Origin: Tropicimonas sp. IMCC6043
GTDB taxonomy: Bacteria > Pseudomonadota > Alphaproteobacteria > Rhodobacterales > Rhodobacteraceae
DNA length: 37,141 nt
Reading direction: 5' to 3'
Assembly (NCBI RefSeq): GCF_004146235.1
Contig: NZ_SELO01000038.1
Location: 1 to 37,141, forward strand
Shown piece by piece: positions 993 to 26,609 of this stretch. The stretch's first letter is position 1; every line of letters starts with the position of its first letter. The notes under the pieces were generated by a model that saw nothing but the letters and a program-made list of their open reading frames with translations, was not told the origin of the DNA and did no database searches. The position numbers and the translations under genes were made by a program.

Positions 993-1154
993 TGCATCGA
1001 CTCCGGGTGGAATTGCGCAAATCCTAGGCAGAGAGAGGCGGCAAGGCAATCCTCCGGCTCTATACGGAAATGGGGTGCGGAGCCGGATTATTTGATTGTT
1101 TTATTGAAGAAAGTTCTGGGTTCGCAAAGATCATTGGCAACATGGCGTGAATAA

Positions 1155-1279: not shown

Positions 1280-2323
1280 ATGCCGCTATCCGCCCGCACA
1301 TACACTCTCGCCCTCGTCGCCGGATTCATGACAACGGCAACCGCCGAGGCACAGTCCTTGCGCTGGTTGACGCAATCGCAGGAGAGCGCGGCCCAGTATC
1401 CCGCAGAAATCTCGGCCATCGAAGCTGCCGGAGCTGCTGGCTTCGAAGTATCGCGGAACGAGTTCCAGGTGCTGGGCGTGAATCTTGCCGACGCGCTGCG
1501 TCTGGTGGGGTCCGGGGCATTTGACCTCGCAACCGTGCAGGTGGGGAGCGCGGCCAAAGACGACCCCTTCCTTGAAGGGATCGACCTCATCGGTGTCTCG
1601 ACCGACATGAACGATCTGAAGGAGGCCGTGGACGCCTATCGCGAGGCGTTCAACGCACGCCTTGGCGAGAAGTTTGGCACCAAGGCAATGGCAATCTGGC
1701 CGTTTGGCCCCCAGGTCTTCCTCTGCAATGCCGAGATGTCGTCGCTCGCCGACCTGGACGGTCTAAAGGTGCGCTCCTTCACCGCCTCAATGTCGACTCT
1801 TCTCGAGGAACTCGGCGCGACCCCGGTGACGCTGTCCTTCCCCGAGGTTTACCCTGCGCTTCAACGGGGCGTTGCGTCCTGTGGCGTGACCTCGCCGACC
1901 TCGTCGAATACGGGCAAATGGCCGGAAGTGACGACGCATCTCTATCCCCTTTCCGTGTCCGGGTCGGTACAGGCGCACATGGTAAACCTCGAATGGCTGA
2001 ACGGTCTCGACGACGAAAAACGGACAGCGTTCGAAGCCGTGATGGCCGATCTGGAGGCGGCGCTCTGGGATCTGGCGATTGCGACGAACGGCACCGCGCA
2101 GTCCTGTTCCACGGGCGGAGAATGCCCGGACGGCATCTATACCTCGTACGATATGACCCTTGTCGAGGTGTCGGACGAAGACAAGGCGAGAGTAGGGGAA
2201 ATCTCGGTCTCCAAAATCCTCCCCGAATGGGGCGCCCGCTGCGAGGCTTCCTATGAGGGATGCGTGGCCCTGTGGAACGAGACCGTCGGCGCCGCTCGCG
2301 GCCTGTCCATCTCGGTCGAGTGA
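1280..2323 (+). CDS. dctP: TRAP transporter substrate-binding protein (DctP family)
   Basis: Periplasmic solute receptor of a tripartite ATP-independent transporter, 347 residues. It starts at the ATG at 1280, preceded by AAGGAG with good spacing. Residues 1-24 form a signal peptide with probable cleavage after TAEA. The family signature is present around residue 165 (GLKVRSF), where the conserved arginine (R165) normally pairs with a substrate carboxylate. The helix ELGATPVTLSFPEVYPALQ follows. The protein has six cysteines (149, 201, 276, 282, 321, 328), unusually many for a DctP. Two close pairs near the C-terminus suggest disulfides. It is first gene of an operon with both membrane subunits and several ring-hydrolysing enzymes, so a carboxylated N-heterocycle or ureide is a plausible ligand. 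The substrate cannot be read from sequence. Confidence 0.9.
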   Translation: MPLSARTYTLALVAGFMTTATAEAQSLRWLTQSQESAAQYPAEISAIEAAGAAGFEVSRNEFQVLGVNLADALRLVGSGAFDLATVQVGSAAKDDPFLEGIDLIGVSTDMNDLKEAVDAYREAFNARLGEKFGTKAMAIWPFGPQVFLCNAEMSSLADLDGLKVRSFTASMSTLLEELGATPVTLSFPEVYPALQRGVASCGVTSPTSSNTGKWPEVTTHLYPLSVSGSVQAHMVNLEWLNGLDDEKRTAFEAVMADLEAALWDLAIATNGTAQSCSTGGECPDGIYTSYDMTLVEVSDEDKARVGEISVSKILPEWGARCEASYEGCVALWNETVGAARGLSISVE

Positions 2324-2918: not shown

Positions 2919-4182
2919 AGGCGCCGCGATCGGCTTTGCCCTGCTTCTTTTTCTGTTGTTTATCGGTCAGCACATCGCGACTGCCCTCTTCACGGTCGCA
3001 CTGACCGGGGCGTGGCTGTTCTTTGGCGACGCCATGCTGCGGCCATTCGGAACGATGATGTGGGGCACGCTGAACAATTTCCTGCTGGTCGCCATCCCGC
3101 TTTTTGTCCTCATGGGCGAGATTCTCGTCCGCGGCGGCGTCACGGAGCGCATGTATCGTGCACTGGCCGACTGGACGAGGCCACTGCCCGGCGGCCTTCT
3201 GCACACAAATATCGCGGCCTCGACGGTTTTTGCCGCTATCTCCGGGTCATCGGTTGCCACCGCCGCGACCATCGGAACCGTCGCCTTTCCGACCTTCCGG
3301 CGTCAGAACTACGCCGAGTCATGGGTGGCAGGCAGCGTAGCCTCTGGTGCGACACTCGGTATCCTCATCCCGCCCTCGATCAACCTGATCATCTATGGCG
3401 CCATCACCAACACTTCGATCGGGGCGCTGTTCATCGCAGGAATCCTTCCAGGTATCCTTCTGGCAACGGCCTTCATGGCGGTGATTATTGTTGCTAGCTT
3501 GCTGAATCCGGCTGTCGCTGGGCGACCCGAGCGAATGGCCGCGTGGCCCGAGCGTCGGAAGCGGCTGGGCGACCTGCTGCCGCCTGTGGCGATCTTCGTT
3601 CTCGTGATGGGCTCGATCTACCTCGGCTTTGCCACGCCGACCGAAGCTGCGGGCGTCGGCGTCGTCGGCGCCCTGGTCCTAACGACCTGCTATCGGTCCC
3701 TTAAATGGTCCATGTTGCGCGAGGCCATGGTGTCGACCGTGACCACCACCGCCATGACGCTGCTGATCCTTGTGGCGGCGTTCTATCTGAACTTCATCCT
3801 CGGCGTTCTGGGCGTGCCCGCGCAGGTGTCTTCGTTCGTTTCTGAACTGGAGGTTGGTCCGGTCGCCATGCTCATGCTTCTGGTGGCTCTCTACCTGATC
3901 CTCGGCTGCTTTCTCGACGCACTGGCGATGATGATCGCGACAATCCCCATCGTTCTGCCGGTTGTGACACATCTGGGTTATGACAGCGTGTGGTTCGGAA
4001 TCTTTCTGGTGATGATGTGTGAGCTTGCGCTGATCACGCCCCCCGTGGGCATGAACCTCTATGTCACGCAAAGCGTTCGTGGACGGGGGCAGGTTGGCAC
4101 AGTCATAATTGGCGTGCTTCCGTTCCTTGCCTGCATTCTTGGGGTCGTCGCGCTAATCGCGATCTTCCCGGGTTTGCTGTAA
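2905..4182 (+). CDS. dctM: TRAP transporter large permease (DctM family)
   Basis: Sodium-coupled transport subunit of 425 residues with about twelve hydrophobic segments. Family landmarks are visible: IPLFVLMGEILVRGG near residue 65, the repeat-one signature ISGSSVATAATIGTV, GILIPPSINLIIYG, FATPTEAAGVGVVGAL, and the late ITPPVGMNLYV. The start at ATG 2905 overlaps the end of dctQ. A longer start at 2830 would read a second frame through dctQ. The stop is joined to the next gene as TAATG (one-base overlap at 4182), so transport and the first racemase-fold enzyme are translationally coupled. Confidence 0.92.
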   Translation: MLGIEGAAIGFALLLFLLFIGQHIATALFTVALTGAWLFFGDAMLRPFGTMMWGTLNNFLLVAIPLFVLMGEILVRGGVTERMYRALADWTRPLPGGLLHTNIAASTVFAAISGSSVATAATIGTVAFPTFRRQNYAESWVAGSVASGATLGILIPPSINLIIYGAITNTSIGALFIAGILPGILLATAFMAVIIVASLLNPAVAGRPERMAAWPERRKRLGDLLPPVAIFVLVMGSIYLGFATPTEAAGVGVVGALVLTTCYRSLKWSMLREAMVSTVTTTAMTLLILVAAFYLNFILGVLGVPAQVSSFVSELEVGPVAMLMLLVALYLILGCFLDALAMMIATIPIVLPVVTHLGYDSVWFGIFLVMMCELALITPPVGMNLYVTQSVRGRGQVGTVIIGVLPFLACILGVVALIAIFPGLL

Positions 4183-4904
4183 TGCATATCCTGATAATCA
4201 ACCCGAATACGTCCGAACAGGTAACACAAGCCTTCGTGGTCGAAGCTCGCCGCGTGGCGCCGGAGGCGGTGCACATCTCGGGCGTGACGGGCGCATTCGG
4301 CGCGCGCATAGTTACGACCGAGGCCGAGAACCTTGTCGCCGCCCATGCCGCACTGGAACTTGCGGCAGAGCATTACGCGGATTTCGACGGTGTGATCCTA
4401 GCAATTTCCTTCGACACCGGCCTTCGTGCGCTGTCGGAATTGTTGCCGGTGCCGGTGGTCGGCATTACCGAGGCAGCCCTGGCAAAGGCAGGACTCGGCC
4501 AGGTCGGCGCGGTGATCTTCGGGGCCTCCAGCCTGCCGCTGTATCAACGCCTGTTGGCTGGCTACGGGCGCAAACCGGTCGCCTGGGAGGTGATCGACTT
4601 TTCCTCTCCCGCCGAATACCTGAACTCGGCTGCCCGCGATGACGTCGTCCTGTCCGCTATTGGAAGGCTCGCGGACGCTGGGGCGACGTCCGCTGTGATC
4701 CTTGGAGCCGCAATCGTCGGTATGGCCGATCGGCTTGCTCCACGCGCTGCGATCCCGGTCAGCGATGGGGCTGCGGCGGTGGATCTGTGCTGCGCACGGA
4801 TCGCCGAGTGTGCTCCCCTTCCTCCAAGACCTGTCCCGATCGCAGAATGCTTTGGATTGTCGCCGGCCCTCGCCGCCTTGATTTCTGACGGACCCAAGAG
4901 ATGA
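4182..4904 (+). CDS. Asp/Glu/hydantoin racemase-fold protein 1 (no catalytic cysteines)
   Basis: A 240-residue member of the Asp/Glu/hydantoin racemase superfamily, recognised by the N-terminal MHILIINPNTSE and the VPVVGITEAAL stretch near residue 90. Classical hydantoin and allantoin racemases use two cysteines, one after the third strand (about residue 76 in hydantoin racemase) and one in an L-G-C-A-G-M-A motif. Here the first site reads LAISFDTGL with Ile75 in the cysteine position. The second reads LGAAIVGMAD with no cysteine. Two-base racemisation is therefore unlikely. The protein may be an isomerase, decarboxylase or hydrolase of related chemistry, or non-catalytic. The remaining cysteines sit only near the C-terminus (DLCCARIAEC). 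The gene overlaps dctM by one base and the amidohydrolase by four. Confidence 0.82.
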   Translation: MHILIINPNTSEQVTQAFVVEARRVAPEAVHISGVTGAFGARIVTTEAENLVAAHAALELAAEHYADFDGVILAISFDTGLRALSELLPVPVVGITEAALAKAGLGQVGAVIFGASSLPLYQRLLAGYGRKPVAWEVIDFSSPAEYLNSAARDDVVLSAIGRLADAGATSAVILGAAIVGMADRLAPRAAIPVSDGAAAVDLCCARIAECAPLPPRPVPIAECFGLSPALAALISDGPKR

Positions 4905-6412
4905 CCTCTACGTTGTTCCGAAACGTCCATCTGCTGGATCTCGCTTCCGAAGACGGCATGACGTCGGCAACCGACCTTCTGGTCGCGGATGGGTGTATTG
5001 CCAAGACCGGTATTGCCTTGACCGTACCCGACGGCGCTCGGGTGATCGACGGGAAGGGCGATCTGCTGATGCCGGGCCTGATCAACGCGCATTTTCACTC
5101 TTCGGTGAACCACATGAAGGGGCGGCTACCCTGCCTGCCGCTGGAGCTTTTCATGCTCTATGAAAGCCCTGCGCTCGAAACGCTGCGCCCGACGCCGAGG
5201 CAGGCGTATCTGCGCACCATGCTCGGCTGCATTGAGATGCTCCGGAACGGGACGACGGCTGTTATGGACGATTGTTTCTTCGTGCCGGAACCCGCGCCAG
5301 AGATCATCGACGCGGTGGCGCAGGCCTATGCCGACAGCGGGATCCGGGCGACGCTTGCCCTGGATGAACCCGAACTGTCCGAGATCGAGAAACTGCCTTT
5401 CCTTGACGAGTTGGCGCCCGCGGATTTGCGCGATGGCTTGGCACGGAGACCGAAACTGGCGGCCCCCGATCTCCTGTCGCTCTACGATCACCTGATCGGG
5501 CGCTGGCACGGCGCCGAAGGCGGGCGGATTGGCGCGGCGGTCTCGTGCTCGGCGCCGCAGAGAGTCACGCCGGACTACTTCGCGGCGCTTGATGCATTGA
5601 GCCGCGATCACGATCTGCCGGTCTTCGCGCACATGCTGGAAACGAAATTGCAGCGCGTCCTGGGACACGAGAATTTCGGCGGGCGGTCGCTGGTGCGATA
5701 CACGCATGACTTGGGCCTTCTGTCAGAGCGGATGCAGGTCATTCATGCGATCTGGGTGGACGGCGACGATCTGGACCTGATCGCCGAAACCGGGGCGAAT
5801 GTGGCGCACAACCCGATCAGCAACCTGCGGCTTGGATCCGGAATCATGCCGCTGCGGGAGATGCTGGATCGGCATATCCCGGTCGCATTGGGCGTTGACG
5901 AAGCCATCGCCGATGATGCGGTAAACATGTGGTCCGTGATGAAGACCGCAGGGATGATTCACAGCCTTTCTGGGGACGATCCCGATCTCTGGCCCTCGGC
6001 ACGCGAAATCCTGTACGCCGCGACAAGAGGCGGGTCGCATGCGATGCGCAGGCCCGGCCTTGGAACGTTGCAGCCGGGCGCGCCCGCAGATCTGACCCTT
6101 GTGGACCTGTCGTCGCTGGCCTTCCTGCCACTCAATGATCTTGTGCGGCAACTGGTCCATGTCGAAAACGGCAGTTCCGTGCGGCTGACCATGGTAGCGG
6201 GCCGCGTTGTGGCTGAGGCCGGACGGGTTACAACGGTGGATGAAGCGGCTTTGCTCGACGAGGCGCGCGAGGTCTTCGCAGAGATCGCCCCCAGCTTGCG
6301 CCGCGCCGCGAGCGAAGTCGCGGATTTGCTGCCGGTCTACCGCGCCATGCATGACCGTGCCGCCGCGCGCGACGTTGGAATTACACGCAAGCTCAAGAGA
6401 GGACTGGGATGA
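4901..6412 (+). CDS. TRZ/ATZ-type amidohydrolase (cyclic amidine deaminase/hydrolase)
   Basis: A 503-residue cytosolic metallohydrolase of the amidohydrolase superfamily, closest in layout to the TRZ/ATZ, cytosine/guanine deaminase and N-ethylammeline chlorohydrolase group. Visible metal and catalytic positions are H64 and H66 (NAHFHS), H244 with E247 (FAHMLETK), H282 (VIHAIW) and D333 (LGVDEA). The segment AHNPISNLRLGSGIMPLREM is diagnostic of this group. The late GTLQPGAPADLTLVDL belongs to the composite beta domain. These enzymes remove an amino or halide group from a ring carbon. The real substrate is unknown. The start forms an ATGA overlap with the previous gene, and the stop forms another ATGA with the next, so it is embedded in a coupled operon. 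The length, about 50 residues above usual, comes from an insertion around residues 155-205. Confidence 0.86.
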   Translation: MTSTLFRNVHLLDLASEDGMTSATDLLVADGCIAKTGIALTVPDGARVIDGKGDLLMPGLINAHFHSSVNHMKGRLPCLPLELFMLYESPALETLRPTPRQAYLRTMLGCIEMLRNGTTAVMDDCFFVPEPAPEIIDAVAQAYADSGIRATLALDEPELSEIEKLPFLDELAPADLRDGLARRPKLAAPDLLSLYDHLIGRWHGAEGGRIGAAVSCSAPQRVTPDYFAALDALSRDHDLPVFAHMLETKLQRVLGHENFGGRSLVRYTHDLGLLSERMQVIHAIWVDGDDLDLIAETGANVAHNPISNLRLGSGIMPLREMLDRHIPVALGVDEAIADDAVNMWSVMKTAGMIHSLSGDDPDLWPSAREILYAATRGGSHAMRRPGLGTLQPGAPADLTLVDLSSLAFLPLNDLVRQLVHVENGSSVRLTMVAGRVVAEAGRVTTVDEAALLDEAREVFAEIAPSLRRAASEVADLLPVYRAMHDRAAARDVGITRKLKRGLG

Positions 6413-7275
6413 CATTGCCGTGGGGCCACTCGGCTCTTCCGACCCGTCCGAAGGGGGTATGGCCCAACGGCGCGCGTGTCGCGCTATGGGTCGCCGTCGG
6501 GGTTGAAAGCTACAGGCCGGACGACGGCATGACCGAGGATATTCTGCCGCGCGGTGCACCTCCGGATCTGGTGAACGCGGCATGGCGCGACTACGGCAAC
6601 CGGGTTGGGGCCTTCAGGCTGTTCGACCGACTGGCGGGAATCGGGATCCGGCCTGCCGTTCTGCTGAACACCAACCTTTATGAAGAGGCGCCGGAGGTTC
6701 TGACAGCCGCACGCGCCGCCGGGTCCGAGATCGTGGCGCATGGTCGGACGAACTCCGACAGCCTGCCTGCGATTGGCAGTGGGGCCGAGGCGGATTACGT
6801 CGCCGAGGTGCGCACCCGGATCGAGGCCGAGGAGGGGGCACCGCCTGGCGGCTGGTCCTCTCCCTGGCTCGCGCATACTCCAAGTTCGCTGGCCAGCCTT
6901 GCAGGTGCTGGCTATAGATATCTGCTGGACCTGCGTCTGGATGACCAACCGGTCTGGCTTCGCACTGGTACTGGCCGAATGCTGGCCATTCCGTATGCTG
7001 CTGAGTTGAACGACAGCACCTCGATGATCGGACGGCAGATGAATGCCCGAAGCTTTGCGGCGATGATACGGGACGAGGCCGCCGAATTGCTGGGGGCAAG
7101 TCATCCGGTCGTGATGAGCGTCGTACTGCACAGCTTTATCTCGGGCCAGCCCTGGCGCATGCGCCCCGTGGCCGAAGCGCTGGCCGAGGTGGCTGCCATG
7201 GACGGTGTCTGGTGCGCCACGCCGGCGGAGATTTTCGATGCCGTTCTGGCGAAACCGACGCTTGCCGTGGGGTGA
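6409..7275 (+). CDS. PuuE-type polysaccharide-deacetylase-fold hydrolase (allantoinase-like)
   Basis: A 288-residue member of the polysaccharide deacetylase fold in the PuuE branch, whose known members include metal-independent allantoinases. PuuE landmarks are present: DYGNRVGAFRLFD near residue 60, HGRTNSD near residue 111, WSSPWLAHTPSSLASLAGAG, the LDDQPVW stretch, IPYAAELND, and LHSFISGQPWRM near residue 240. It opens an internal amide of a five-membered ureide ring in known relatives. Whether allantoin is the substrate here is open, because the usual purine-pathway partners are absent. It overlaps the amidohydrolase by four bases (ATGA), and the next gene starts three bases after its stop. 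Confidence 0.84.
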   Translation: MTLPWGHSALPTRPKGVWPNGARVALWVAVGVESYRPDDGMTEDILPRGAPPDLVNAAWRDYGNRVGAFRLFDRLAGIGIRPAVLLNTNLYEEAPEVLTAARAAGSEIVAHGRTNSDSLPAIGSGAEADYVAEVRTRIEAEEGAPPGGWSSPWLAHTPSSLASLAGAGYRYLLDLRLDDQPVWLRTGTGRMLAIPYAAELNDSTSMIGRQMNARSFAAMIRDEAAELLGASHPVVMSVVLHSFISGQPWRMRPVAEALAEVAAMDGVWCATPAEIFDAVLAKPTLAVG

Positions 7276-7278
7276 AAC

Positions 7279-8025
7279 ATGAGACTCCTGTTTGCCAATC
7301 CCAACACCTCGAAAGCCATGGCAGAGATCATGGTGTCGGAAGCGCGAAGGATCGCGGCGCCGGGAACGCAGATCGATGTCTGTTCGGCGGCCTTTGGATC
7401 GGCTTACATCTCGACCCGGGGCGAGGCGGCAGTCGCCGGGCACGCGCTCTTGTCGACCATCGCGGAACATCTCGACGGCCATGATGCGGTAATCGTCGGG
7501 GCGTTCATCGTGCCCGCCGTCACCGCTGCAGCGAAAGAGATGTGCCCAGTGCCCCTGATCGCGACGGGCGAGGCGGGGCTGGCGGCGGCATCGCTTGTGG
7601 GCCAAGCCATTTCGGTCCTGTCCATAGGTGCGCCGTCTCGCCGTATGACCGAAGAGACCGTCGCCGCGACCGGACTGGCTGACCGCGTCGTCTCGATCCG
7701 TGATCTTGGCCTGACAGGGACCGAACTCACCGACGATCAGGCGCGCGCCGACACCATGGCAATCGACCTGGCGCAAGCGATGGTCGCCGACGACAGGGCC
7801 GACGTGATCGTGCTGGGGGCGGGGTCGATGGAAGGCATGGCGCGGCGCATCCAGCCCCATTTGCCGGTGCCTGTGGTCTCGCCGGTCGGCGCGGCGGTCT
7901 GCATGGCAGAGATGATTCACCGCCTCCGCCTGCCAAAGCCGGGCGCAGGCAGCTATGTCCGCCCGTCGCGTATCGATATGACCGGGCTGGACCCCGCGCT
8001 GACCCGGATGTTTCGCGGCGACTAG
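7279..8025 (+). CDS. Asp/Glu/hydantoin racemase-fold protein 2 (no catalytic cysteines)
   Basis: A 248-residue paralogue of the genes at 4182 and 8125, with the same opening (MRLLFANPNTSKAM). The first active-site loop reads VIVGAFIVPAV with Ala75 in the cysteine position. The second reads VLGAGSMEGMARR, again without cysteine. Cys35 and Cys89 are elsewhere in the fold. Like its relatives it should be a small cytosolic enzyme with pseudo-twofold alpha/beta domains, but not a classical two-cysteine racemase. It is the last gene of the first operon, three bases behind the PuuE-like gene, and faces the third paralogue across about 100 bases. The C-terminus (SYVRPSRIDMTGLDPALTRM) resembles that of the paralogue at 8125, suggesting these two belong to one subgroup. 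Confidence 0.82.
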   Translation: MRLLFANPNTSKAMAEIMVSEARRIAAPGTQIDVCSAAFGSAYISTRGEAAVAGHALLSTIAEHLDGHDAVIVGAFIVPAVTAAAKEMCPVPLIATGEAGLAAASLVGQAISVLSIGAPSRRMTEETVAATGLADRVVSIRDLGLTGTELTDDQARADTMAIDLAQAMVADDRADVIVLGAGSMEGMARRIQPHLPVPVVSPVGAAVCMAEMIHRLRLPKPGAGSYVRPSRIDMTGLDPALTRMFRGD

Positions 8026-8031
8026 AGCGTT

Positions 8032-8127
8032 TCGATTTATCGTTGAAGCATCACGTATCGGCAATCGCGTTCGAGGCGAAGCCGAGAGGCAGCGACTGAC
8101 GATTCAATGTTAAATCGATATGCTTCA
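8032..8127. repeat. Intergenic imperfect inverted repeat between convergent operons
   Basis: The left arm TCGATTTATCGTTGAA (8032-8047) is matched in inverse by 8103-8118, with 14 of 16 positions identical. A second inverse pair, TGAAGCAT (8044-8051) with ATGCTTCA (8120-8127), partly overlaps it. The element fills the gap between two convergent genes and could act as a bidirectional terminator or transcript-end hairpin. It resembles the dispersed intergenic palindromes I associate with Rhodobacteraceae genomes, but copy number cannot be seen here. Confidence 0.5.
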
Positions 8128-8868
8128 GGTCTCTCTAGCGAGGTGGCGGGCCAGCGCTGCCGGCAGTCCGGTGGAAGGCTTACCCGGTGGACGCCGGTAG
8201 CTACCGCCAGAGGCACCCTGCGGGGAAAGGCGGGCCAGCGCCACGGCTTGCAAGACGGCGGCCTGCACCGGGTCGATCAGCACAGCATCGACATCTCCAC
8301 GCAATTTCGGAGCAAGCCCGGCCAGCGGCGCGCCGGAAAGGATCAGCACATCCGCCCCACTCTCGACCGCATTGTGGCACTCCGCGATCAGCGGAGCGCG
8401 CAGGTCGGTGTCAATCTCGCCGATATTGCCCAGCGGGACATCCGGGGTGAAGGTTCCCGCGAAACGTGGCAACAATTCCGCCTGCCGCACCTGTTCATTG
8501 TACCAGGGCGCCATGCGGGGAGTGAAGGTGACGAACGCAAAACGCTGCCCCAGCATGCAGGCCGAGAGCATAGAAGCTTCGGTCATGCCGGTAATCGGCA
8601 CGTCGAAGGCTTCGCGGGCAGCCAGAAGACCGGGATCCCCAAAAGCCCCGATCACCGCGGCATCAATCCCGCCGGCGTGGTGCGCCAGCGTGTCGAGAAC
8701 GCCGACGCCGGCGCAATGCGCTTCGGCCCGGGACGAAATGTAGGGAAAACCTTCCTCGGCGGTCACGGAAATCAGATCTACGTCCGATGCCAGCACCCTG
8801 CGCGCCGCGACGTCCAGCTTGTCGGTCAGCACCTGCGAGGTGTTTGGATTTATCAACAGGATGCGCAT
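8125..8868 (-). CDS. Asp/Glu/hydantoin racemase-fold protein 3 (no catalytic cysteines)
   Basis: A 247-residue paralogue starting MRILLINPNTSQ. The first active-site loop is VIGAFGDPGLL, so Ala75 replaces the nucleophilic cysteine while the G-D-P-G-L frame is kept. The second loop is LILSGAPLAGLAP, also without cysteine. The combination of GAFGDPGL and GAPLAGLA is one I recognise from a widespread uncharacterised branch annotated as hydantoin racemase. The start ATG at 8868 shares one base with the dctM stop (TGATG), fixing the start and coupling it to the second TRAP system. Longer in-frame starts would overlap dctM. It is the last gene of the uraD-dctP-dctQ-dctM operon. Function is probably substrate isomerisation or cleavage linked to the transported compound. 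Confidence 0.83.
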   Translation of the reverse strand: MRILLINPNTSQVLTDKLDVAARRVLASDVDLISVTAEEGFPYISSRAEAHCAGVGVLDTLAHHAGGIDAAVIGAFGDPGLLAAREAFDVPITGMTEASMLSACMLGQRFAFVTFTPRMAPWYNEQVRQAELLPRFAGTFTPDVPLGNIGEIDTDLRAPLIAECHNAVESGADVLILSGAPLAGLAPKLRGDVDAVLIDPVQAAVLQAVALARLSPQGASGGSYRRPPGKPSTGLPAALARHLARET

Positions 8869-10148
8869 CAATACCCCATGGCCCTCGGTAACGTCGTTAC
8901 GACGCCGGGGAAAATCATGCACAGGAACAGCACCGCATACATGGCCGCAATGAAGGGCCAGCTTTCGCGGACGAGTTCCGTCATCCTCACTCCGGTAATT
9001 CCACAAACCACAAACAGGATCACGCCCACGGGCGGCGTCAGCATCCCGATTACGAGGTTCAGCACAAAGAGAAAGCCAAAATGCAGCGGATCGAGTCCGA
9101 ATTGCATCGCGATCGGATGGAACAGAGGCACGAGCATGATGTTGGCGGCATTGGATTCAAGGAACATGCCCACCACCAGCATCATCAGCGCCACAAGCAC
9201 CAGAAACATCATCGGACTATCGGTGATCTCCTTGATCGCCCCGGCCAGCTTGATCGGCAGCAGGTCGATAGTGAACAGGAACGTGACAGTCGAGGCGAAG
9301 GCGATCATGGCGCCGACCATCGCGGTGGTCTTGGCTGCGGTGAGCAACACGCCAGGCAGGTCCGAGACACGGAGCTTCCGGGTGATGAAGAAACCGATGA
9401 AGAGCGCGTAGCACACGCCGATTGCCGCCCCTTCCGTAGGCGTGAAGGCGCCGGCCACGATCCCGCCGATCACCACGATCGGCATCATGAAGACGATGAC
9501 GGAGCGGCGGGTCTCGCGCAGGGCGTTGCGCAGGTTAAAGCCTTCGCCGACCAGCGGATAGTCGCGCCGCCACGAGATGAACCAGCAAAGCGCCATCAGC
9601 GACAGGAACAGGATCAGTCCCGGCACTACGCCGGCCATGAAGAGGCCCCCGACCGAAACGCTGGAACCGGCCATGAAGGCATAGACGATCATCGCCCCGG
9701 ACGGCGGAATGATCGGCCCGAGATTGGCTGCGGCCGCCACGATGCCCGAGGAGAACCCCAGTCCGTATTGCTTTTTCAGCGAGGGCACGAGGGTCGAGGA
9801 GAGCGCCGAAGCATCGGCGACGGCCGCGCCCGAGACTGACGCAAGCCCCGCACCAGCGACGATGGACACCTGCGCCAGGCCGCCGCGCATTCGTCCGACA
9901 AAGGCGTTGGCGAAGTCCACGAGCCGGTCCATGATCCCGCCCTTCAGCATCAGCTCGCCCGCGATCATGAACAGAGGAATGGACATCAACGGGAATGAAT
10001 TCACTGCATTCATCATCCGGCTCGCCATGATCGACGATTCGAACCCGGCCACCCATAGCCCCAGCATCGCGGCGCATCCCAAGGAAAAGGCCAGGGGCAT
10101 TCCGAGTACCCCGAGGAAAAAGAAGCAGGCGATGACGGCAAAGCTCAT
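8868..10148 (-). CDS. dctM: TRAP transporter large permease (DctM family), second system
   Basis: A 426-residue membrane protein with about twelve hydrophobic segments. The DctM landmarks are FPLMSIPLFMIAGELMLKGG near residue 50, the repeat-one signature VSGAAVADASALSSTLVPSL, NLGPIIPPSGAMIVYAF, FTPTEGAAIGVCYALF, and LTPPVGVILFVVCGI near the C-terminus. It works with the adjacent DctQ and DctP in sodium-driven uptake. It overlaps dctQ by four bases (ATGA at 10145-10148) and its stop overlaps the racemase-fold start. The sequence differs clearly from the DctM at 2905, so this is a second transporter class rather than a recent duplication. Confidence 0.92.
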   Translation of the reverse strand: MSFAVIACFFFLGVLGMPLAFSLGCAAMLGLWVAGFESSIMASRMMNAVNSFPLMSIPLFMIAGELMLKGGIMDRLVDFANAFVGRMRGGLAQVSIVAGAGLASVSGAAVADASALSSTLVPSLKKQYGLGFSSGIVAAAANLGPIIPPSGAMIVYAFMAGSSVSVGGLFMAGVVPGLILFLSLMALCWFISWRRDYPLVGEGFNLRNALRETRRSVIVFMMPIVVIGGIVAGAFTPTEGAAIGVCYALFIGFFITRKLRVSDLPGVLLTAAKTTAMVGAMIAFASTVTFLFTIDLLPIKLAGAIKEITDSPMMFLVLVALMMLVVGMFLESNAANIMLVPLFHPIAMQFGLDPLHFGFLFVLNLVIGMLTPPVGVILFVVCGITGVRMTELVRESWPFIAAMYAVLFLCMIFPGVVTTLPRAMGY

Positions 10149-10624
10149 GGCAGGGGCGTATCCGGATCGGCCGCCATGTAAAGCAGGTGCAGCGCCGAAT
10201 GAAGCGCGCCCAAGATGACGGGGAAGAAGAAGACTGACGAAGTCACATTGATTGAGCCCAGGCGTTCGCTCCAGGTGGCGCCCGCGACCTGAAATGTTGC
10301 CCAGGTGACGATCAGCAGCATCACCCCTGCGAGGGAACTGGTAAAGCGTTTGACGAGGTGGCGCGGCAAGGTCGGAAGGCGATCAACGATCAGGTCGATA
10401 CCGACATGGGTCCCGTCGCGGACGCCAAGCGGGATGCCGACGAAAATCGTTGTGACGAATGCGAGGCGCGAGACCTCATCTGCCCAGTCGAACGAAGCGT
10501 TGAATCCGTAGCGCATGACAACCTGCGCCGTGACAACTGTGACCATGATCGCGGCCGAGGCGATCACGACGAGCCGCGCGCCGGTATCGGCGCGCGCCAG
10601 GATCATTGGGATGATCGTCCTCAT
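10145..10624 (-). CDS. dctQ: TRAP transporter small permease (DctQ family), second system
   Basis: A 159-residue small TRAP subunit with four hydrophobic segments. Family features include VVMRYGFNASFDWADEVSRL after the first helix and the GVRDGTHVGIDLIVDRLP loop. The latter is the usual conserved cytoplasmic segment between helices two and three. It starts seven bases after the dctP stop and ends in an ATGA overlap with dctM. It lacks the long hydrophilic C-terminal tail seen in the first system. Confidence 0.88.
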   Translation of the reverse strand: MRTIIPMILARADTGARLVVIASAAIMVTVVTAQVVMRYGFNASFDWADEVSRLAFVTTIFVGIPLGVRDGTHVGIDLIVDRLPTLPRHLVKRFTSSLAGVMLLIVTWATFQVAGATWSERLGSINVTSSVFFFPVILGALHSALHLLYMAADPDTPLP

Positions 10625-10631
10625 CGTCCCG

Positions 10632-11609
10632 TCAGTTCATCGTTTCGGTGTCAAGCAGCTCCACCAGCGCAGGGTCCAAACGGGCCTTGGTTTCGGCTGC
10701 AACACCGGCCACGCTTTCGCGAAGAGCTGCGGCGAATTCCGGGGACACCTCGGTGTAGGTCATGCCCATCTCGATAATCTTGTCGAGCGCGGCACCGTCC
10801 TGCTCTTCGGCCAGCTTGCGCTGTTCGGCAACTGCGGTGTCCATCGCCTCGGTGACCCAACCCTGCTGCTCGGCACCCAACCCGTCGAACCACGCCTTGT
10901 TGGCGACGACCGAGATGAAGTCGAAGAAATGGCCGGTATTGGACACGTATTCCTGCACTTCCGGATAGCCCGCCACCTGGATGATCGAGAAGGGGTTTTC
11001 CTGCCCGTCGATCACCTTTTGCTCCAGCGCCGAGTACAATTCGTTCACATCCATCGCCAACGGGTTGGCGCCGAGAGCGCGGAATGTGGCGAGATGGGTC
11101 TCATTCGGCTGCAAGCGGATCTTAAGCCCCTCAATGTCCCCGATCTTTTCGATCGGGCGCACGGAGTTGGTCAGCTGGCGAAAACCGAGCTCCATGTAGC
11201 CCAGGGACTTGATGTCTTCCGCGGCCAGCTTCTCGTCGAGCGCATCGCCGACCGGGCCGTCAACCACCTTGAACGCATCCTCGCGACTTTCGAACTGGAA
11301 GGGCAGACCGACGATCTCCAGCTCGGGAACGGTGCGGGTCAGATAGGCGGTGCCCACCCAGATAATTTCGACCGCGCCCAGCTTCACCGCCTGGACGTTC
11401 TCGGCCGCACCGCCAAGTTGGCGGGCGGGAAAAAGATTGACTTCGAATTCACCGCCGGAGAGTTCGACCAGCTTTTCTGCAAAGATCTCCATCGCGACGG
11501 AGGAGGAATGGTCGGTCGCGAAGTTGCCGGCTACGCGGATAGTCTCGGCCTGCGCAGCGGCGGACAGGGCCATCACGGATGTGGCGAGTGCGATAGTCTG
11601 GAGTTTCAT
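10632..11609 (-). CDS. dctP: TRAP transporter substrate-binding protein (DctP family), second system
   Basis: A 325-residue periplasmic receptor. The signal peptide spans residues 1-21 (MKLQTIALATSVMALSAAAQA). Family signatures are GLKIRLQPNE with the carboxylate-binding arginine at R165, a following helix with LGANPLAMDVNELYSALEQ, and VIDGQENPF. The latter is typical of the DctP/YiaO/RRR subgroup. The ATG at 11609 is preceded by AGGAGA and overlaps the uraD stop by four bases (ATGA). Upstream in-frame starts run inside uraD. Unlike the DctP at 1280 it has no cysteine cluster, so the two receptors belong to different subgroups and may bind different but related carboxylates. Confidence 0.92.
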   Translation of the reverse strand: MKLQTIALATSVMALSAAAQAETIRVAGNFATDHSSSVAMEIFAEKLVELSGGEFEVNLFPARQLGGAAENVQAVKLGAVEIIWVGTAYLTRTVPELEIVGLPFQFESREDAFKVVDGPVGDALDEKLAAEDIKSLGYMELGFRQLTNSVRPIEKIGDIEGLKIRLQPNETHLATFRALGANPLAMDVNELYSALEQKVIDGQENPFSIIQVAGYPEVQEYVSNTGHFFDFISVVANKAWFDGLGAEQQGWVTEAMDTAVAEQRKLAEEQDGAALDKIIEMGMTYTEVSPEFAAALRESVAGVAAETKARLDPALVELLDTETMN

Positions 11610-12190
11610 TTCGTCGTCTCCTGTTTCTGGGAAGGGGATGATGAGGAACGGTTCGGGATATTGGAGGGAGGGGATCCGAAGGCGCTGTCGCACCGCGATT
11701 GGATCACCGACGCGATCTCGGCCAGCGTGGTCGTATGCTCTTCGAGCCTGGTGGCTTTGAGACGCTTTTCGAATATCTCGAAGAGCACGTTGCGATCGGG
11801 CACGCGGTGCAGTGCGATGATGAAGGGATGCCCGAAGCGTGCACGGTATGACGCGTTCAGTTCGCGGAGCCGGCGCGCCTCGGATTCCGGAAGATCGGTC
11901 AGGCCGAGCCGACCCTGCTCGGAGGCGCTTTCGGCGGTGATATAGCCCTCTCTGACCTCAGGCCCAGCAAGCTCAGGATGGACGTTGAATAGTGCCAGGC
12001 GCCGCTCTGGAGGCGCCGACAGGATCACCTCGACCAGAGCCTCGGCAACAGCCCCGTCGGAAGCAAAGGGACGCTGATCTACTGCGACCTCGGCCACCCA
12101 GGGCGAGCGCTCCACGAGAGGGATCAGGGTCAGAAGTGCTTGTTCACGCTGAGCAGAGTTCAGCGCGTTTATCGCGGTGTTCATAGTCAT
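11606..12190 (-). CDS. uraD: OHCU decarboxylase family protein (UraD-like)
   Basis: A 194-residue protein of the 2-oxo-4-hydroxy-4-carboxy-5-ureidoimidazoline decarboxylase family. In uric acid breakdown this enzyme converts OHCU to (S)-allantoin. Key residues are visible: H71 in NVHPELAG (the family's catalytic histidine), E91 in the SASEQGRLGL motif, and YRARFGHPFI near residue 115. SPWVAEVAVDQRPF near residue 29 is also a family hallmark. Start candidates are ATG 12190 and ATG 12184. Neither has a strong ribosome site, and I list the outer one. A serine-rich C-terminal tail of about 25 residues goes beyond the family core. It is the first gene of the second TRAP operon and overlaps dctP by four bases. 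No uricase or HIU hydrolase accompanies it, so it may decarboxylate a different compound. Confidence 0.85.
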   Translation of the reverse strand: MTMNTAINALNSAQREQALLTLIPLVERSPWVAEVAVDQRPFASDGAVAEALVEVILSAPPERRLALFNVHPELAGPEVREGYITAESASEQGRLGLTDLPESEARRLRELNASYRARFGHPFIIALHRVPDRNVLFEIFEKRLKATRLEEHTTTLAEIASVIQSRCDSAFGSPPSNIPNRSSSSPSQKQETTK

Positions 12191-12218
12191 GTCCGTAGTC
12201 TTTGAGGTCACCCTAGCG

Positions 12219-12244
12219 ATGTGGCGCATTGCAATCCATCACAT
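12219..12244. promoter_or_regulatory. Concentric dyad in the uraD-lysR intergenic region (operator candidate)
   Basis: ATGTG at 12219-12223 and CACAT at 12240-12244 are inverted around the same centre (12231.5) as the perfect palindrome ATTGCAAT at 12228-12235. Together they make a 26-bp dyad with 18 of 26 symmetric positions. It lies between the divergent LysR gene and uraD operon, where LysR regulators bind. The nested symmetry makes chance less likely than for a single short palindrome. Confidence 0.5.
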
Positions 12245-12286
12245 AAAAGTCCACGTTTCATTCGAATAATTAGGATGCTTTTGACA

Positions 12287-13219
12287 ATGTCGCTGTCTCT
12301 TGTGCCGCGAGTTCTGCGTTACGTCGAAGCCGTTGCGGAGCACGGCTCAATTCAGGCCACCTCGCGTGCTATCGGCATCTCGGCTTCAGCCATCGACCGC
12401 CAGATCAAGTTGCTGGAAGACCATTTGGATGTGCAGCTATTCGATCGTCAGAGCACCGGGATGGAGACAACCGTCGCCGGTGAGATGTTCATCGTGCTTG
12501 CTCGCCGGTGGCGGGCGGAAGAGAACACCATCCTTTCGGACGTGAAGAGGATGCAGGGGATTGACCTCGGTCTCGTGAGGCTCGCGACGATGGACAGCCT
12601 GGCTAACGGACCTCTGCCGCGTGCGTTGTCGGTCATCGCGCGTGATTTTCCGCGCGTTCAGATCGAGGTCGAAATCATGACGCCGGACCAGGCGGTCGCC
12701 GCCCTAAATGATGGAACTGCGGACCTGGCGCTTGGTTTCAACATCAAGGCCGCGCGGGATCTTCACCTGATGTGGACGGTGGATTTGCCGCTGGTCTGCG
12801 TCTGCGCGCCTGATCATCCGGTCGCCGACCTTGCATCCATCTCGGTCAAGGAGGTGCGGGGCTTTCCACTTGTGGTCCAGAGTCGTGCATTGGCAATCCG
12901 GCGGATGCTGGAAGCGCGTCACTCATGGCTTTTCACCAATGCGCAACCTCCTGTGGTTACGAACTCCCTGCAACTTCTCAAGCAGCTTGTCGCCGCCGGA
13001 ACGCATCTCGCGCTGACGTCGCAGTTGGACGCGGCGTCAGAACTGGCAAACGGCAGGATGGTGGCCATTCCGATCTCGGACACGGAGATCCGCAGCCAGT
13101 CGATCAGCCTTGCGGTCAGCGTGAAACGCACGCTGCCGCGCATCTGCTCTACAGTGGCGGAGGTCCTGATACGCGAGATGTCGACCTGCGTGAACGAGAT
13201 CACCGGCGCGTCCCGGTGA
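12287..13219 (+). CDS. LysR family transcriptional regulator
   Basis: A 310-residue regulator. The N-terminal winged helix spans about residues 5-65 (LRYVEAVAEHGSIQATSRAI, then the recognition helix SASAIDRQIKLLEDHL and the wing LFDRQSTGMETTVAG). A periplasmic-binding-like effector domain runs from about residue 90, with LVRLATMDS and the TADLALGFNI stretch. The methionine at 12287 gives the usual short leader before the helix-turn-helix. ATG 12275 is the alternative, and the AGG at 12272-12274 lies between consensus spacings for both. It diverges from uraD across a region with a concentric dyad, so it probably controls the uraD-TRAP operon. The substrate or a ring-opened intermediate would be the co-inducer. 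It converges on the arylmalonate-decarboxylase-like gene 32 bases away. Confidence 0.9.
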   Translation: MSLSLVPRVLRYVEAVAEHGSIQATSRAIGISASAIDRQIKLLEDHLDVQLFDRQSTGMETTVAGEMFIVLARRWRAEENTILSDVKRMQGIDLGLVRLATMDSLANGPLPRALSVIARDFPRVQIEVEIMTPDQAVAALNDGTADLALGFNIKAARDLHLMWTVDLPLVCVCAPDHPVADLASISVKEVRGFPLVVQSRALAIRRMLEARHSWLFTNAQPPVVTNSLQLLKQLVAAGTHLALTSQLDAASELANGRMVAIPISDTEIRSQSISLAVSVKRTLPRICSTVAEVLIREMSTCVNEITGASR

Positions 13220-13251
13220 CGCCGGCCCGGGCCGCGCTCTCTGCAAAGCCG

Positions 13252-14019
13252 TCAGTCCGGCGCAGTCGGTGATGGCCGGGCGAACAGGCGAAAGACGCTG
13301 CCCCAGCCCGTGACCCGCGACGGATCCAGCCCGACTTCACTCAGGCAATGTGCCGCCGTCAGGGCAACCGAGTCGAGAACGGGAACGCCGGTGGCTTCTT
13401 CGATCCGGGGCGCCGCGGGCGCGCCACGAAAGTTGGTGCAGACGATGGCAATGGCGTCTGGTTTAGCCCGGGCCACCTGTTCAGCCATCGCCCCTGCCTG
13501 TTCGGGCGGATAGGTGGCATAGCTGAAATTGCCCTTGTCATCCAACCGCATCTTGTCGACCACCTCGATGCCCCGCGCCGCGTAGTTGGCGATCATGCGT
13601 GCCTCGATATCGGCTGGATAGGGCGTGACGAGGCCAAGCCGGGTGACGCCCATCCTCTTGAAGAGCGCGTCATAGGCGAGCATCGTCGAGGTGGCCGGAA
13701 TACCCGTGCGCTCGGTAATTGCGGCGCAAAGCGTTCGATCCCTCTCCAGCCCAAGCCAGCCCGCAGAGGTGCCATTCCAGGCAATCAGATGGGGTTCGGC
13801 TTCTGCGAGGCGATCCGCGGCCTCGAGGATCGGCTCGAGTGCGAACTGCGATTGCGAGGCCTCGGACAGGGAAATCTCCACCACCCGGAAACGTCCGAAA
13901 TGAACCGACGCCTCGTCGCCGAATTGGGCGAACATCGCCGAGGTATAGGGTTCGAGCACCGTGTTGGAGGACGGTGTAAGCATGCCGACGCGCCGGCCGT
14001 CAAAGGCTTTGAAAGTCAT
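13252..14019 (-). CDS. Arylmalonate decarboxylase / maleate isomerase-like protein
   Basis: A 255-residue member of the Asp/Glu racemase superfamily in the branch of maleate cis-trans isomerase and arylmalonate decarboxylase (AMDase). The opening RVGMLTPSSNTVLEP is typical of maleate isomerase-like proteins. Racemases and maleate isomerase have a cysteine in each half, but here the first loop is WNGTSAGW (G83, T84, S85). That matches the Gly-Thr-Ser of AMDase, where those residues help form the carboxylate-stabilising oxyanion pocket. The second loop keeps cysteine (C194 in IVCTNFRGA). Y134 in VTPYPAD matches the AMDase tyrosine position. A one-cysteine site implies decarboxylation or one-sided protonation rather than racemisation. 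It overlaps the hydantoinase stop by four bases (ATGA 14016-14019), so it likely acts on or near the hydantoinase product. Assignment between the two activities is inference. Confidence 0.8.
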   Translation of the reverse strand: MTFKAFDGRRVGMLTPSSNTVLEPYTSAMFAQFGDEASVHFGRFRVVEISLSEASQSQFALEPILEAADRLAEAEPHLIAWNGTSAGWLGLERDRTLCAAITERTGIPATSTMLAYDALFKRMGVTRLGLVTPYPADIEARMIANYAARGIEVVDKMRLDDKGNFSYATYPPEQAGAMAEQVARAKPDAIAIVCTNFRGAPAAPRIEEATGVPVLDSVALTAAHCLSEVGLDPSRVTGWGSVFRLFARPSPTAPD

Positions 14020-15410
14020 GGTCTAGCTCCTGTCTTCGCGCGGGCCACATGCTGGCCCATCGCCGTTCCCACCGGGACTCCGCCCAGCATCACGGTCTGG
14101 CCGCGCAGGATGGTGCGGACCGGCCATCCGGTGACTTCGAACCCTTCCCAGGGCGTGTAATCGGACCCGTGGTGCAGGATGTCCTGCGTGATTGTCCGGG
14201 TCTGCGCGGGGTCCCAGAGAACGATGTCGGCATCCTTCCCTACGGCAATGGCCCCCTTGCGCTCCAGCCCGTAGATCCGCGCGTGGTTGGTGGCGGTCAG
14301 CGCGGCGAAAGCCTCGAGGCTGATCCGTCCCTTGCTCACGCCTTCCGAGAACAGGATCGGCAGCCTGGTCTCGACGCCCGGAATTCCGTTCGGGATGTTG
14401 CGGAAGGAAGCGCGCGCTCCCGGTGCGTCCTTGCCGGCCGGATCAGCGAAGCGGAAGGGGCAGTGGTCGGAGGAAAACACGTCGAAGGCGCCCTGTTCCA
14501 GCCCGGCCAAGATCGCGGCTTGCTCGTCCGTATCGCGCGGCGGCGGCGAGCAGACCCATTTGGCTCCCTCGAAGCCGGCGCGGTCCAGATCGTCGGCGGT
14601 CAGCGTGATGTATTGCGGGCAGGTCTCGGCAAAGACGCGTACGCCGCGCGCCCTCGCGCGTCGGATCTCGTCCAAGGCCGCACCGTTCGACACATGGACG
14701 ATCATCACCGGCACATCGGCCACTTCGGCCAGCATCGCCGCACGATGCGTCGCTTCCCGCTCGACCGGAACAGGGCGGGTGCGCGCGTGGTGGACCGGCT
14801 GAATACGTCCATCGCGCTCGGCCTTCTCGCGCAGGAATTCTATGGCGTCCTCGTTCTCGGCGTGGACCATGGTCAGTGCGCCCTGTTCGCGCGCTACGTC
14901 CATGACCTGGAGGATCTCGGCATCGGTCAGACGCATGCCCTCGTAAGTCATAAAGACCTTGAAGCTGGTCATGCCTTTCGCAATCAGTGCCGGAAGATCC
15001 TGCCCGAGCGTCACTGGATCGGCGGATTTGACGATCAGGTGGAACGACACGTCCGTCATGCACTTCCCGTCGGCCTTTGCCAGGTATGCCGCGACCGCCT
15101 CGCGCAGGGTCTTACCGTCCTCGGGCAGACAGAAGGGCATCACCGTCGTGTTTCCGCCGCAGGCCGCTGCCCGCGTGGCCGAAGCGAAATCGTCGGCCAT
15201 CTCGATCCCCGGGCCGGAGGGTTGCGATATGTGAACATGACTGTCGATACCGCCGGGCATGGCGATCAAGCCACGGGCGTCGATGACCTCGGCGCCCGTC
15301 AGTCCGATGCCCAGTGCTGTGATCTGGCCTTGGGAAATGCCGATGTCGCACGATGAGACCGCGCCTGACGTGACAACCTGCGCGTTTTGAACGACTAGGT
15401 CATGAAACAT
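14016..15410 (-). CDS. hydA: D-hydantoinase / dihydropyrimidinase family amidohydrolase
   Basis: A 464-residue cytosolic binuclear-zinc amidohydrolase that opens the cyclic amide of hydantoins or dihydropyrimidines. All expected residues are visible: H58 and H60 (GGIDSHVHI), the lysine to be carboxylated K151 (TSFKVFMTY), H183 (MVHAEN), H239 (IVHVSNGAA) and D315 (FSSDHCPF). NIPNGIPGVETRLPIL and the late SDYTPWEGFEVTGWP are typical of this family. The start at 15410 has AAGG about twelve bases upstream, a loose fit. The stop overlaps the AMDase-like start, so the two proteins should be made together. No carbamoylase follows, so the ring-opened carbamoyl product is presumably processed by the AMDase-like protein or by enzymes outside the window. 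Confidence 0.92.
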   Translation of the reverse strand: MFHDLVVQNAQVVTSGAVSSCDIGISQGQITALGIGLTGAEVIDARGLIAMPGGIDSHVHISQPSGPGIEMADDFASATRAAACGGNTTVMPFCLPEDGKTLREAVAAYLAKADGKCMTDVSFHLIVKSADPVTLGQDLPALIAKGMTSFKVFMTYEGMRLTDAEILQVMDVAREQGALTMVHAENEDAIEFLREKAERDGRIQPVHHARTRPVPVEREATHRAAMLAEVADVPVMIVHVSNGAALDEIRRARARGVRVFAETCPQYITLTADDLDRAGFEGAKWVCSPPPRDTDEQAAILAGLEQGAFDVFSSDHCPFRFADPAGKDAPGARASFRNIPNGIPGVETRLPILFSEGVSKGRISLEAFAALTATNHARIYGLERKGAIAVGKDADIVLWDPAQTRTITQDILHHGSDYTPWEGFEVTGWPVRTILRGQTVMLGGVPVGTAMGQHVARAKTGARP

Positions 15411-22739: not shown

Positions 22740-22747
22740 CAGATCCC

Positions 22748-25488: not shown

Positions 25489-25514
25489 GGACGATGCCTC
25501 TTCGGAAAGGAGTT

Positions 25515-25538
25515 CCGGGCCTGGCCGTGCAGGCCCGG
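25515..25538 (-). promoter_or_regulatory. Intercistronic stem-loop between binding-protein and ATPase genes
   Basis: CCGGGCCT (25515-25522) and AGGCCCGG (25531-25538) form a perfect 8-bp GC-rich stem with an eight-base loop. It lies in the 62-base gap after the binding-protein stop. Weaker pairing (GTT with AAC) extends the base. There is no long T-run, so it looks like a partial terminator or 3'-end stabiliser. Such structures usually let a periplasmic binding protein be made in excess of its membrane partners. Confidence 0.6.
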
Positions 25539-25550
25539 AGGAACAGATTA

Positions 25551-26534: not shown

Positions 26535-26609
26535 CTGACCTCCCAAAGTTTTCTGTGCCTGGCGGTTCGCCGCCGGGTCGTTCGGCGCGACGAGCGCGCC
26601 TTGGATTAG

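What the first reader, a model, noticed from the sequence alone, without database searches (positions are those of the whole stretch)
4182..14019. Four racemase-fold genes in one island, three without either catalytic cysteine
The proteins at 4182, 7279 and 8125 all align at residue 75, the nucleophilic cysteine position of hydantoin and allantoin racemases. They have Ile, Ala and Ala there, and their second loops read LGAAIVG, LGAGSMEG and SGAPLAG. The fourth relative (13252) keeps one cysteine. Established: two-cysteine chemistry defines Asp/Glu/hydantoin racemases. Inference: these proteins perform a different reaction on the imported compounds, possibly an undescribed one. Two are coupled to dctM by one-base overlaps, linking each to a transporter.
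Basis: partly seen in the sequence, partly recalled or inferred. Interest (0 to 1): 0.7.

Follow-up and report, generated by a model that had tools for sequence, protein, structure and literature searches.

The report
Cysteine-free racemase relatives in ring-opening operons
Three proteins that look like hydantoin/allantoin racemases have lost both catalytic cysteines; two of them belong to conserved cysteine-free families that sit beside importers and ring-opening enzymes, so they probably do a different, still unknown, reaction in the breakdown of ring-shaped nitrogen compounds.

Summary
Proteins A (4182-4904), B (7279-8025) and C (8125-8868, minus) are hydantoin/allantoin-racemase-family proteins with Ile, Ala and Ala at residue 75 and Gly/Ala/Gly at the second cysteine position. 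C and A are not decaying copies: C belongs to a widespread family (Alpha-, Beta-, Gammaproteobacteria, an Arthrobacter plasmid) with loops AFGDPGL and GAPLAGL, A to a smaller one (xSxDT). The 55 sampled rows without the second cysteine form one clade (99/98), apart from the true racemases. C sits in a conserved LysR / uraD-dctPQM-C unit with a one-base dctM-C overlap in 4 of 4 species. Its wider family adjoins D-hydantoinase and a D-type protein (29 of 57 loci carry both). D belongs to another branch (maleate isomerase/arylmalonate decarboxylase); Gly83/Cys194 is normal there (55 of 55), so it is not a half-lost racemase. B has no clear orthologue and also lost Asp78. Most likely A and C do one-sided, cysteine-free acid/base chemistry on ring-derived ureides or imides; the reaction itself is not shown. 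A racemase with substitute residues remains a live rival (P. fluorescens allantoin racemase lacks the first cysteine).

The parts
312..1049 (-). GntR/FCD-type regulator, divergent from the A operon
   Evidence: ORF; GntR + FCD domains
1280..2323 (+). dctP1, TRAP solute receptor of the A operon
   Evidence: PF03480 and TRAP_S1 above cut-off; orthologue in L201
2253..2918 (+). dctQ1, small TRAP permease (start uncertain; overlaps dctP1 in the longest frame)
   Evidence: ORF; PF04290 92 bits; orthologue in L201
2830..4182 (+). dctM1, large TRAP permease (start uncertain); its TAA shares one base with the ATG of A
   Evidence: PF06808 303 bits
4182..4904 (+). protein A: Cys-less racemase-fold protein, loops ISFDTGL and LGAAIVGM (I75, D78, G175)
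   Evidence: PF01177 80 bits; dyad; clade of 8 rows, 100/91
4901..6412 (+). TRZ/ATZ-type amidohydrolase (deaminase/hydrolase), 4-base overlap with A
   Evidence: PF01979; 48 NCBIfam models match, the 25 shown all below their cut-offs
6409..7275 (+). PuuE-like polysaccharide-deacetylase-fold hydrolase (cyclic amide/imide opener, inferred)
   Evidence: TIGR03212 69 bits, cut-off 425; PuuE-type structures at E 1e-10 to 1e-12
7279..8025 (+). protein B: divergent Cys-less racemase-fold protein, loops AFIVPAV and LGAGSMEG (A75, V78, A181); no clear orthologue
   Evidence: place in tree unsure
8125..8868 (-). protein C: Cys-less racemase-fold protein, loops AFGDPGL and SGAPLAGL (A75, D78, G179); ATG shares one base with the dctM2 stop
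   Evidence: model pLDDT 94.9
8868..10148 (-). dctM2, large TRAP permease
   Evidence: PF06808 351 bits
10145..10624 (-). dctQ2, small TRAP permease
   Evidence: PF04290 101 bits
10632..11693 (-). dctP2, TRAP solute receptor (start uncertain)
   Evidence: TIGR00787 226 bits, cut-off 175
11606..12229 (-). uraD-like OHCU decarboxylase, one of two copies in this genome (start uncertain)
   Evidence: TIGR03164 125 bits, cut-off 96; solved OHCU decarboxylases; the other copy lies beside a HIU hydrolase-family gene on contig C63
12221..13219 (+). LysR-type regulator, divergent from uraD-dctPQM-C
   Evidence: LysR_substrate and HTH_1; 60-63% identical in L086-L088
13252..14019 (-). protein D: maleate isomerase/arylmalonate decarboxylase-type, Gly83 and Cys194
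   Evidence: PF17645 54.7 bits, cut-off 25.9
14016..15410 (-). hydA, D-hydantoinase/dihydropyrimidinase, overlaps D by 4 bases
   Evidence: TIGR02033 487 bits, cut-off 393

Best explanation
The island is a catabolic locus for cyclic ureides, dihydropyrimidines or imides, with two TRAP importers and three kinds of ring-opening hydrolase. A and C are working enzymes from a branch of the hydantoin/allantoin racemase family that lacks the second catalytic cysteine and, in their own sub-branches, the first as well. With neither thiol, the two-base proton swap of the racemases cannot run in its usual form. I propose one-sided carbanion chemistry (decarboxylation, isomerisation or elimination) next to the carbonyls of an imported ring compound or its opened acid: the invariant Asp78 acts as the only acid/base, and the two glycine-rich loops hold the substrate. 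In the C unit the imported carboxylate would be handled by the UraD-like decarboxylase and C in successive steps. In the A unit the TRZ amidohydrolase and PuuE-like hydrolase open the ring and A acts on the ring compound or the product. D, with its single active-site Cys194, would do arylmalonate-decarboxylase-like chemistry on the acid that HydA releases. Shown: residues, families, conservation, operon structure, co-occurrence. Inferred: catalysis, the role of Asp78, the substrate class, the order of steps.
Against: Asp78 is not new: it is also in all 20 C/C rows, so it may only be structural. Conservation does not separate an enzyme from a conserved binding protein. In the wider class sample the C-D link is weak: C-type in 6 and D-type in 9 of 190 genomes, both in 2 (p 0.03), and in 1 without the window's genome (p 0.20). 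HydA and D are absent within 10 kb of the closest C orthologues L086-L088, so the C unit need not feed the HydA/D branch. Two of eight A-clade loci (L208, L209) have no recognised hydrolase neighbour. In three loci (L078, L109, L206) the C-type gene starts 14-18 bases after dctM, not with an overlap. The genome-contig sample was seeded partly with the AAFG motif, which favours Cys-less members.
Confidence: 0.44

Rival explanations
1. A and C are still racemases or epimerases of hydantoins, allantoin or ureido acids, using residues other than cysteine, as P. fluorescens allantoin racemase does on one face.
For: Closest fold and sequence are allantoin racemases. P. fluorescens AllR has Gly at the first Cys position with Glu three residues on (role of Glu78 recalled). 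C and A keep an acid at residue 78. A D-hydantoinase next door would profit from a racemase. Both single-Cys types occur: C/G 8 and G/C 1 of 38.
Against: AllR keeps the second Cys, which A, B and C lack. The sampled rows without it are one separate clade (99/98). No acid or thiol is conserved in the second loop (GAPLAGL, GAxxAG).
Confidence: 0.27
2. The Cys-less proteins are not catalysts but conserved ligand-binding or partner proteins (pseudoenzymes) that serve the transporter, the hydrolase or regulation.
For: Both catalytic thiols are gone; dctM-C and dctM-A overlap by one base; B has lost Asp78 and Asp199 too.
Against: The loops that face the substrate in the racemases are the best conserved part, and C-type genes occur with ABC, MFS or TRAP importers alike, so a transporter-specific partner role fits poorly.
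Confidence: 0.15
3. B alone is a degenerate or neofunctionalised copy of the C/A lineage, maybe without function.
For: Long branch, no stable place in either tree; its best relatives are 41% and 39% identical (G067, G262) and have AFGDP, not AFIVP; B is missing from the otherwise conserved A operon in L201.
Against: Intact 248-codon frame with the codon-position GC of a real gene, 0.69/0.52/0.79; N7, N9, G40, Y43 and E98 are kept.
Confidence: 0.3

Closest known systems
Allantoin racemase HpxA of Klebsiella pneumoniae (3qvj/3qvk)
   Different: Uses two cysteines (Cys79 and Cys184, as stated in passages of PMC12661438); C has Ala and Gly there, Tyr at 43 instead of Ser, Pro181 instead of Gly
Allantoin racemase AllR of Pseudomonas fluorescens (5lfd/5lg5)
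   Same: Also lacks the first Cys (Gly) and has an acid three residues on
   Different: Keeps the second Cys; lies outside the clade that lacks it
Arylmalonate decarboxylase and maleate cis-trans isomerase (for D)
   Same: Best structural matches of the D model: TM 0.82-0.84 to maleate isomerases, 0.80 to arylmalonate decarboxylase 3dg9; Gly/Cys pattern as in AMDase G74/C188 (passages of PMC4996985)
   Different: Far below the AMDase and EutA curated cut-offs (44 of 225 and 72 of 318 bits); motif N-G-T-S-A..C-T-N; lacks the first Cys of maleate isomerase
Urate/allantoin pathway enzymes (UraD, HIU hydrolase)
   Same: The UraD beside C passes the OHCU decarboxylase cut-off
   Different: This genome has another OHCU decarboxylase-family gene beside a HIU hydrolase-family (PF00576) gene on another contig, so the island is probably not its only urate route
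Hydantoinase operons with hydantoin racemase (HyuE) and carbamoylase (recalled)
   Same: Hydantoinase next to a racemase-fold protein
   Different: The racemase-fold partner has no active-site cysteine and a second, AMDase-like protein is present; this arrangement was not seen in the listings and passages of searches

Membership tests
Hydantoin/allantoin racemase (for A, B, C) | PF01177 domain | tested here: met
   80, 115, 140 bits against cut-off 31
Hydantoin/allantoin racemase (for C) | Asp/Glu racemase two-lobed fold close to allantoin racemase | tested here: met
Hydantoin/allantoin racemase (for A, B, C) | Two catalytic cysteines | tested here: not met
   I/A/A at position 75; G/A/G at the second position
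Hydantoin/allantoin racemase (for A, B, C) | Falls outside the clade that lacks the second Cys, with the characterised racemases | tested here: not met
   A, B and C are among the 55 rows of that clade, 99/98; K. pneumoniae and P. fluorescens enzymes are not
Hydantoin/allantoin racemase (for A, B, C) | Racemase activity | not testable with these tools
   No assay
Arylmalonate decarboxylase (for D) | Gly at first, Cys at second active-site position | tested here: met
   G83/C194; D and 54 relatives alike
Arylmalonate decarboxylase (for D) | NCBIfam equivalog NF052327 cut-off | tested here: not met
   44 bits against 225
Maleate cis-trans isomerase (for D) | Two catalytic cysteines (recalled) | tested here: not met
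   Gly83 at the first position
Ectoine utilisation EutA (for D) | TIGR02990 cut-off | tested here: not met
   72 bits against 318
OHCU decarboxylase (11606-12229) | TIGR03164 cut-off | tested here: met
   125 bits against 96
D-hydantoinase/dihydropyrimidinase (14016-15410) | TIGR02033 cut-off | tested here: met
   487 bits against 393
PuuE allantoinase (6409-7275) | TIGR03212 cut-off | tested here: not met
   69 bits against 425

The most novel reading that the evidence does not exclude
A widespread, unnamed branch of the hydantoin/allantoin racemase family carries out a cysteine-free, cofactor-free reaction not yet described (for example a ureide or imide-acid decarboxylase, isomerase or lyase driven by one aspartate). 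Together with hydantoinase and the D family of single-Cys AMDase-like proteins it would form an undescribed pathway for a ring-shaped nitrogen nutrient, with interchangeable TRAP, ABC or MFS importers.
Probability: 0.42. Interest if true: 0.75.

Novelty: new variant of a known kind. Interest (0 to 1): 0.55.

Why it matters
The Asp/Glu racemase superfamily is usually described by two-cysteine chemistry. A large conserved branch with neither cysteine, fixed motifs and a clear genomic context is a clean test of how an old two-base active site is re-used. Database names such as 'aspartate/glutamate racemase family protein' (seen) hide it in genomes and plasmids. Solving one member would point to a whole pathway (importer, hydantoinase, D, C), and the uraD-dctPQM-C unit narrows the search to few candidate substrates.

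Tried and rejected
Chance or alignment slip: rejected. Pairwise alignments to solved racemases and two multiple alignments put residue 75 on the Cys position, and whole families share the change. The structure searches gave ranges only, not residue pairs.

D as a half-decayed sister of A-C: rejected.

A glutamate-racemase-like PYG carboxylate loop at Tyr43 of C: not supported. A profile comparison with this genome's own glutamate racemase did not align that region (probability 1.7%). Tyr43 goes with the loss of the second Cys in two types (S/G in C/C rows, Y in 78% of C/G and 96% of A/G rows) but not in A's type, which has I/V/A there; its role is open.

The island as this genome's only urate route: weakened by a separate HIU hydrolase-family and OHCU decarboxylase-family pair.

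All Cys-less proteins as one clade: undecided. It is not the best tree, but it is not rejected either (AU p 0.30); so the number of changes at the first Cys (3, 4) is not settled.

First gene calling was spoiled by shadow frames and was redone; one further cluster, c21, looks like a shadow of the C gene and was not used. The UraD count (13 of 57) is too low: L086 and L087 are listed there as having none of six, but one search finds uraD in L086, L087 and L088. Two long-branch rows (L162, L170) were left out of the final tree, and 24 of the 95 GAPL-type sequences were used in it. The C-type and D-type sets of the co-occurrence tests were drawn by me from the tables (C at 48% identity or more in the family, 43% or more with Ala/Gly in the class; D at E 1e-20). 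A search of plasmids with A found nothing. The phage and viral collections were not searched.

Literature: no member lacking both Cys was found in the listings of searches; most subscription papers are not held. From PMC12661438 I saw passages; from PMC4996985 abstract, outline and passages; from PMC8142540 passages; from PMC4016543 abstract, outline and passages (a different enzyme, not relevant). Cendron et al. 2016 and French et al. 2011 were not seen; what I say of Glu78 is recalled.
Full report
What is there. The left 15.4 kb of the window is one catabolic island. On the plus strand run dctP1-dctQ1-dctM1, protein A, a TRZ/ATZ-type amidohydrolase, a PuuE-like hydrolase and protein B. On the minus strand run a uraD-like OHCU decarboxylase, dctP2-dctQ2-dctM2 and protein C, and separately hydA and protein D. 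A GntR-type regulator stands divergent from the first operon and a LysR-type regulator from the uraD operon. HydA passes the D-hydantoinase cut-off (487 against 393 bits) and UraD the OHCU decarboxylase cut-off (125 against 96); the PuuE-like protein is far below the allantoinase cut-off (69 against 425).

The cysteines. A, B and C all hit PF01177 and align with solved allantoin racemases. Position 75 is the first catalytic Cys of the K. pneumoniae enzyme and reads Ile, Ala, Ala; the second position reads Gly175, Ala181, Gly179. No Cys of the three lies in these loops. A and C keep Asp78, which is also in all 20 two-Cys rows; B has Val there. D is another matter: its nearest solved relatives are maleate isomerases and arylmalonate decarboxylases, and D and all 54 relatives examined have Gly83 and Cys194. 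One active-site cysteine is the norm for that branch.

Families, not accidents. Protein searches with A, B and C in 190 genomes of the class, not tied to any motif, gave 38 distinct homologues in the fetched loci, besides the window's own and two solved ones: 17 with both Cys, 8 with only the first, 1 with only the second, and 12 with neither (8 Ala/Gly, 4 of A's V/M-S-x-D type). In those loci and eight plasmid loci, 87 of 92 racemase-fold copies have Ala/Gly at the two positions. One of the two seed motifs contained AAFG and the other NPN, so that proportion is biased; the conservation of the rest is not explained by the seeds. In 52 C-type sequences the active-site loops, as I drew them, are better conserved than the rest (0.87 against 0.64), with T36, Y43, D78, E86, W122 and K230, all outside the seed motifs, in all 52.

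Tree. With the two dyad columns left out, 95 rows gave a clade of all 55 rows that lack the second Cys (bootstrap/SH-aLRT 99/98). Inside it lie A's clade of 8 (100/91) and C's clade of 24 (69/78), or 25 with a close relative from L011 (99/91). The second position changes once on the tree; the first changes 3 or 4 times. One clade of all rows lacking both Cys is not rejected (AU p 0.30). C groups with L086-L088 (100/99). B has no stable place.

Context. The closest relatives of C, in Aquibium, Celeribacter and the gammaproteobacterium Granulosicoccus, lie in the same unit: divergent LysR (60-63%), uraD (55-60%), dctPQM, C; in all three and in the window the ATG of C shares one base with the dctM stop. 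Three other C-type genes that follow dctM start 14-18 bases after it (L078, L109, L206). A's unit dctPQM-A-TRZ-PuuE is kept in one other genome of the family, again with the one-base overlap, but without B (L201). Of eight A-clade loci, six have a PuuE-type or related deacetylase-fold gene, four a TRZ gene, and two have neither. Of 57 C-family loci with both 10-kb flanks, 35 have HydA, 33 a D-type gene, 29 both, 27 an amidase, 20 a TRZ gene, 14 a deacetylase-fold gene, 14 a TRAP dctM; 49 have at least one ring-opening hydrolase. D-type genes lie within 5 kb of C in 29 loci and only farther off in 4; HydA in 25 and 10.

Co-occurrence without the motif bias. In 149 genomes of the family, close C-type genes occur in 7, D-type in 7 and both in 4 (p 6e-5; 3 and 7e-4 without the window's genome). 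In 190 genomes of the class the same test is weak: C-type 6, D-type 9, both 2 (p 0.03), and 1 without the window's genome (p 0.20). A-type and D-type coincide in 3 of 4 A-type genomes of the family and 3 of 5 of the class (p 3e-4, and 7e-4; without the window's genome 0.004 and 0.009). One other genome of the same genus has no close copy of A, C or D, so the island is an accessory trait. On plasmids C, HydA and D stand together in Arthrobacter ZXY-2, Klebsiella, Diaphorobacter, Paraburkholderia and Salipiger.

Reading. A and C are most likely active, since the loops that face the substrate in the racemases are their best conserved part. Without thiols on both faces the standard racemase mechanism is not available. 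The remaining invariant acid in both loops is Asp78. I therefore favour one-sided acid/base chemistry (decarboxylation, isomerisation or elimination) on imported cyclic ureides or imides or their opened acids. The main rival is a racemase with substitute residues: P. fluorescens allantoin racemase shows that the first Cys can be replaced, though it keeps the second. Which of these is true cannot be told from sequence. The island is probably not the genome's only urate route, because a separate HIU hydrolase-family and OHCU decarboxylase-family pair exists.

Novelty. The fold and superfamily are known. The conserved branch lacking the second Cys, its doubly Cys-less families, and their pairing with hydantoinase and the D family: the Cys-less members I scanned match no NCBIfam model, and the pairing was not seen in the papers searched. 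Hence: new variant of a known kind, with an open reaction.

Noticed in passing
window 15907-16464, minus: A DDE transposase gene piece (PF13737, DDE_Tnp_1_5) lies at the right edge of the island, between hydA and an RND efflux pair (ACR_tran and HlyD-type); a likely mobile-element scar.
   Followed up: partly
G000 contig C63, 24041-25860 (in L263): A separate HIU hydrolase-family gene and a second OHCU decarboxylase-family gene, perhaps the genome's standard urate route.
   Followed up: partly
L205, L204, L206, L211, L213, L085, L093, L113, L114, L137, L145, L154, L161, L162: Islands with two or more racemase-fold hits recur: 10 of 89 loci including the window (the second hit of L137 is a short piece), and 5 of 18 further regions. 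L205 has a C-type and an A-type gene on either side of hydA.
   Followed up: partly
L008, L051, L145, L161, L170: A further Cys-less type with an AFGDP first loop and IGGGPLxx second loop.
   Followed up: no
L013, L014, L017, L020, L047, L049, L113: A sister type that keeps only the first Cys: CFGDPGL and GGA(G/A)LAG.
   Followed up: no
window 21774-30006: An ABC importer (SBP_bac_6 receptor) with a ROK-family repressor-like protein, a ROK-family protein and a SIS-domain protein, plus a 321-aa protein (21774-22739) with no Pfam hit.
   Followed up: no
L078 12789-13982: A class-V aminotransferase nearest to the aspartate-glyoxylate enzyme BhcA, but below its cut-off (455 of 650 bits), follows hydA in the Defluviimonas plasmid.
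   Followed up: no
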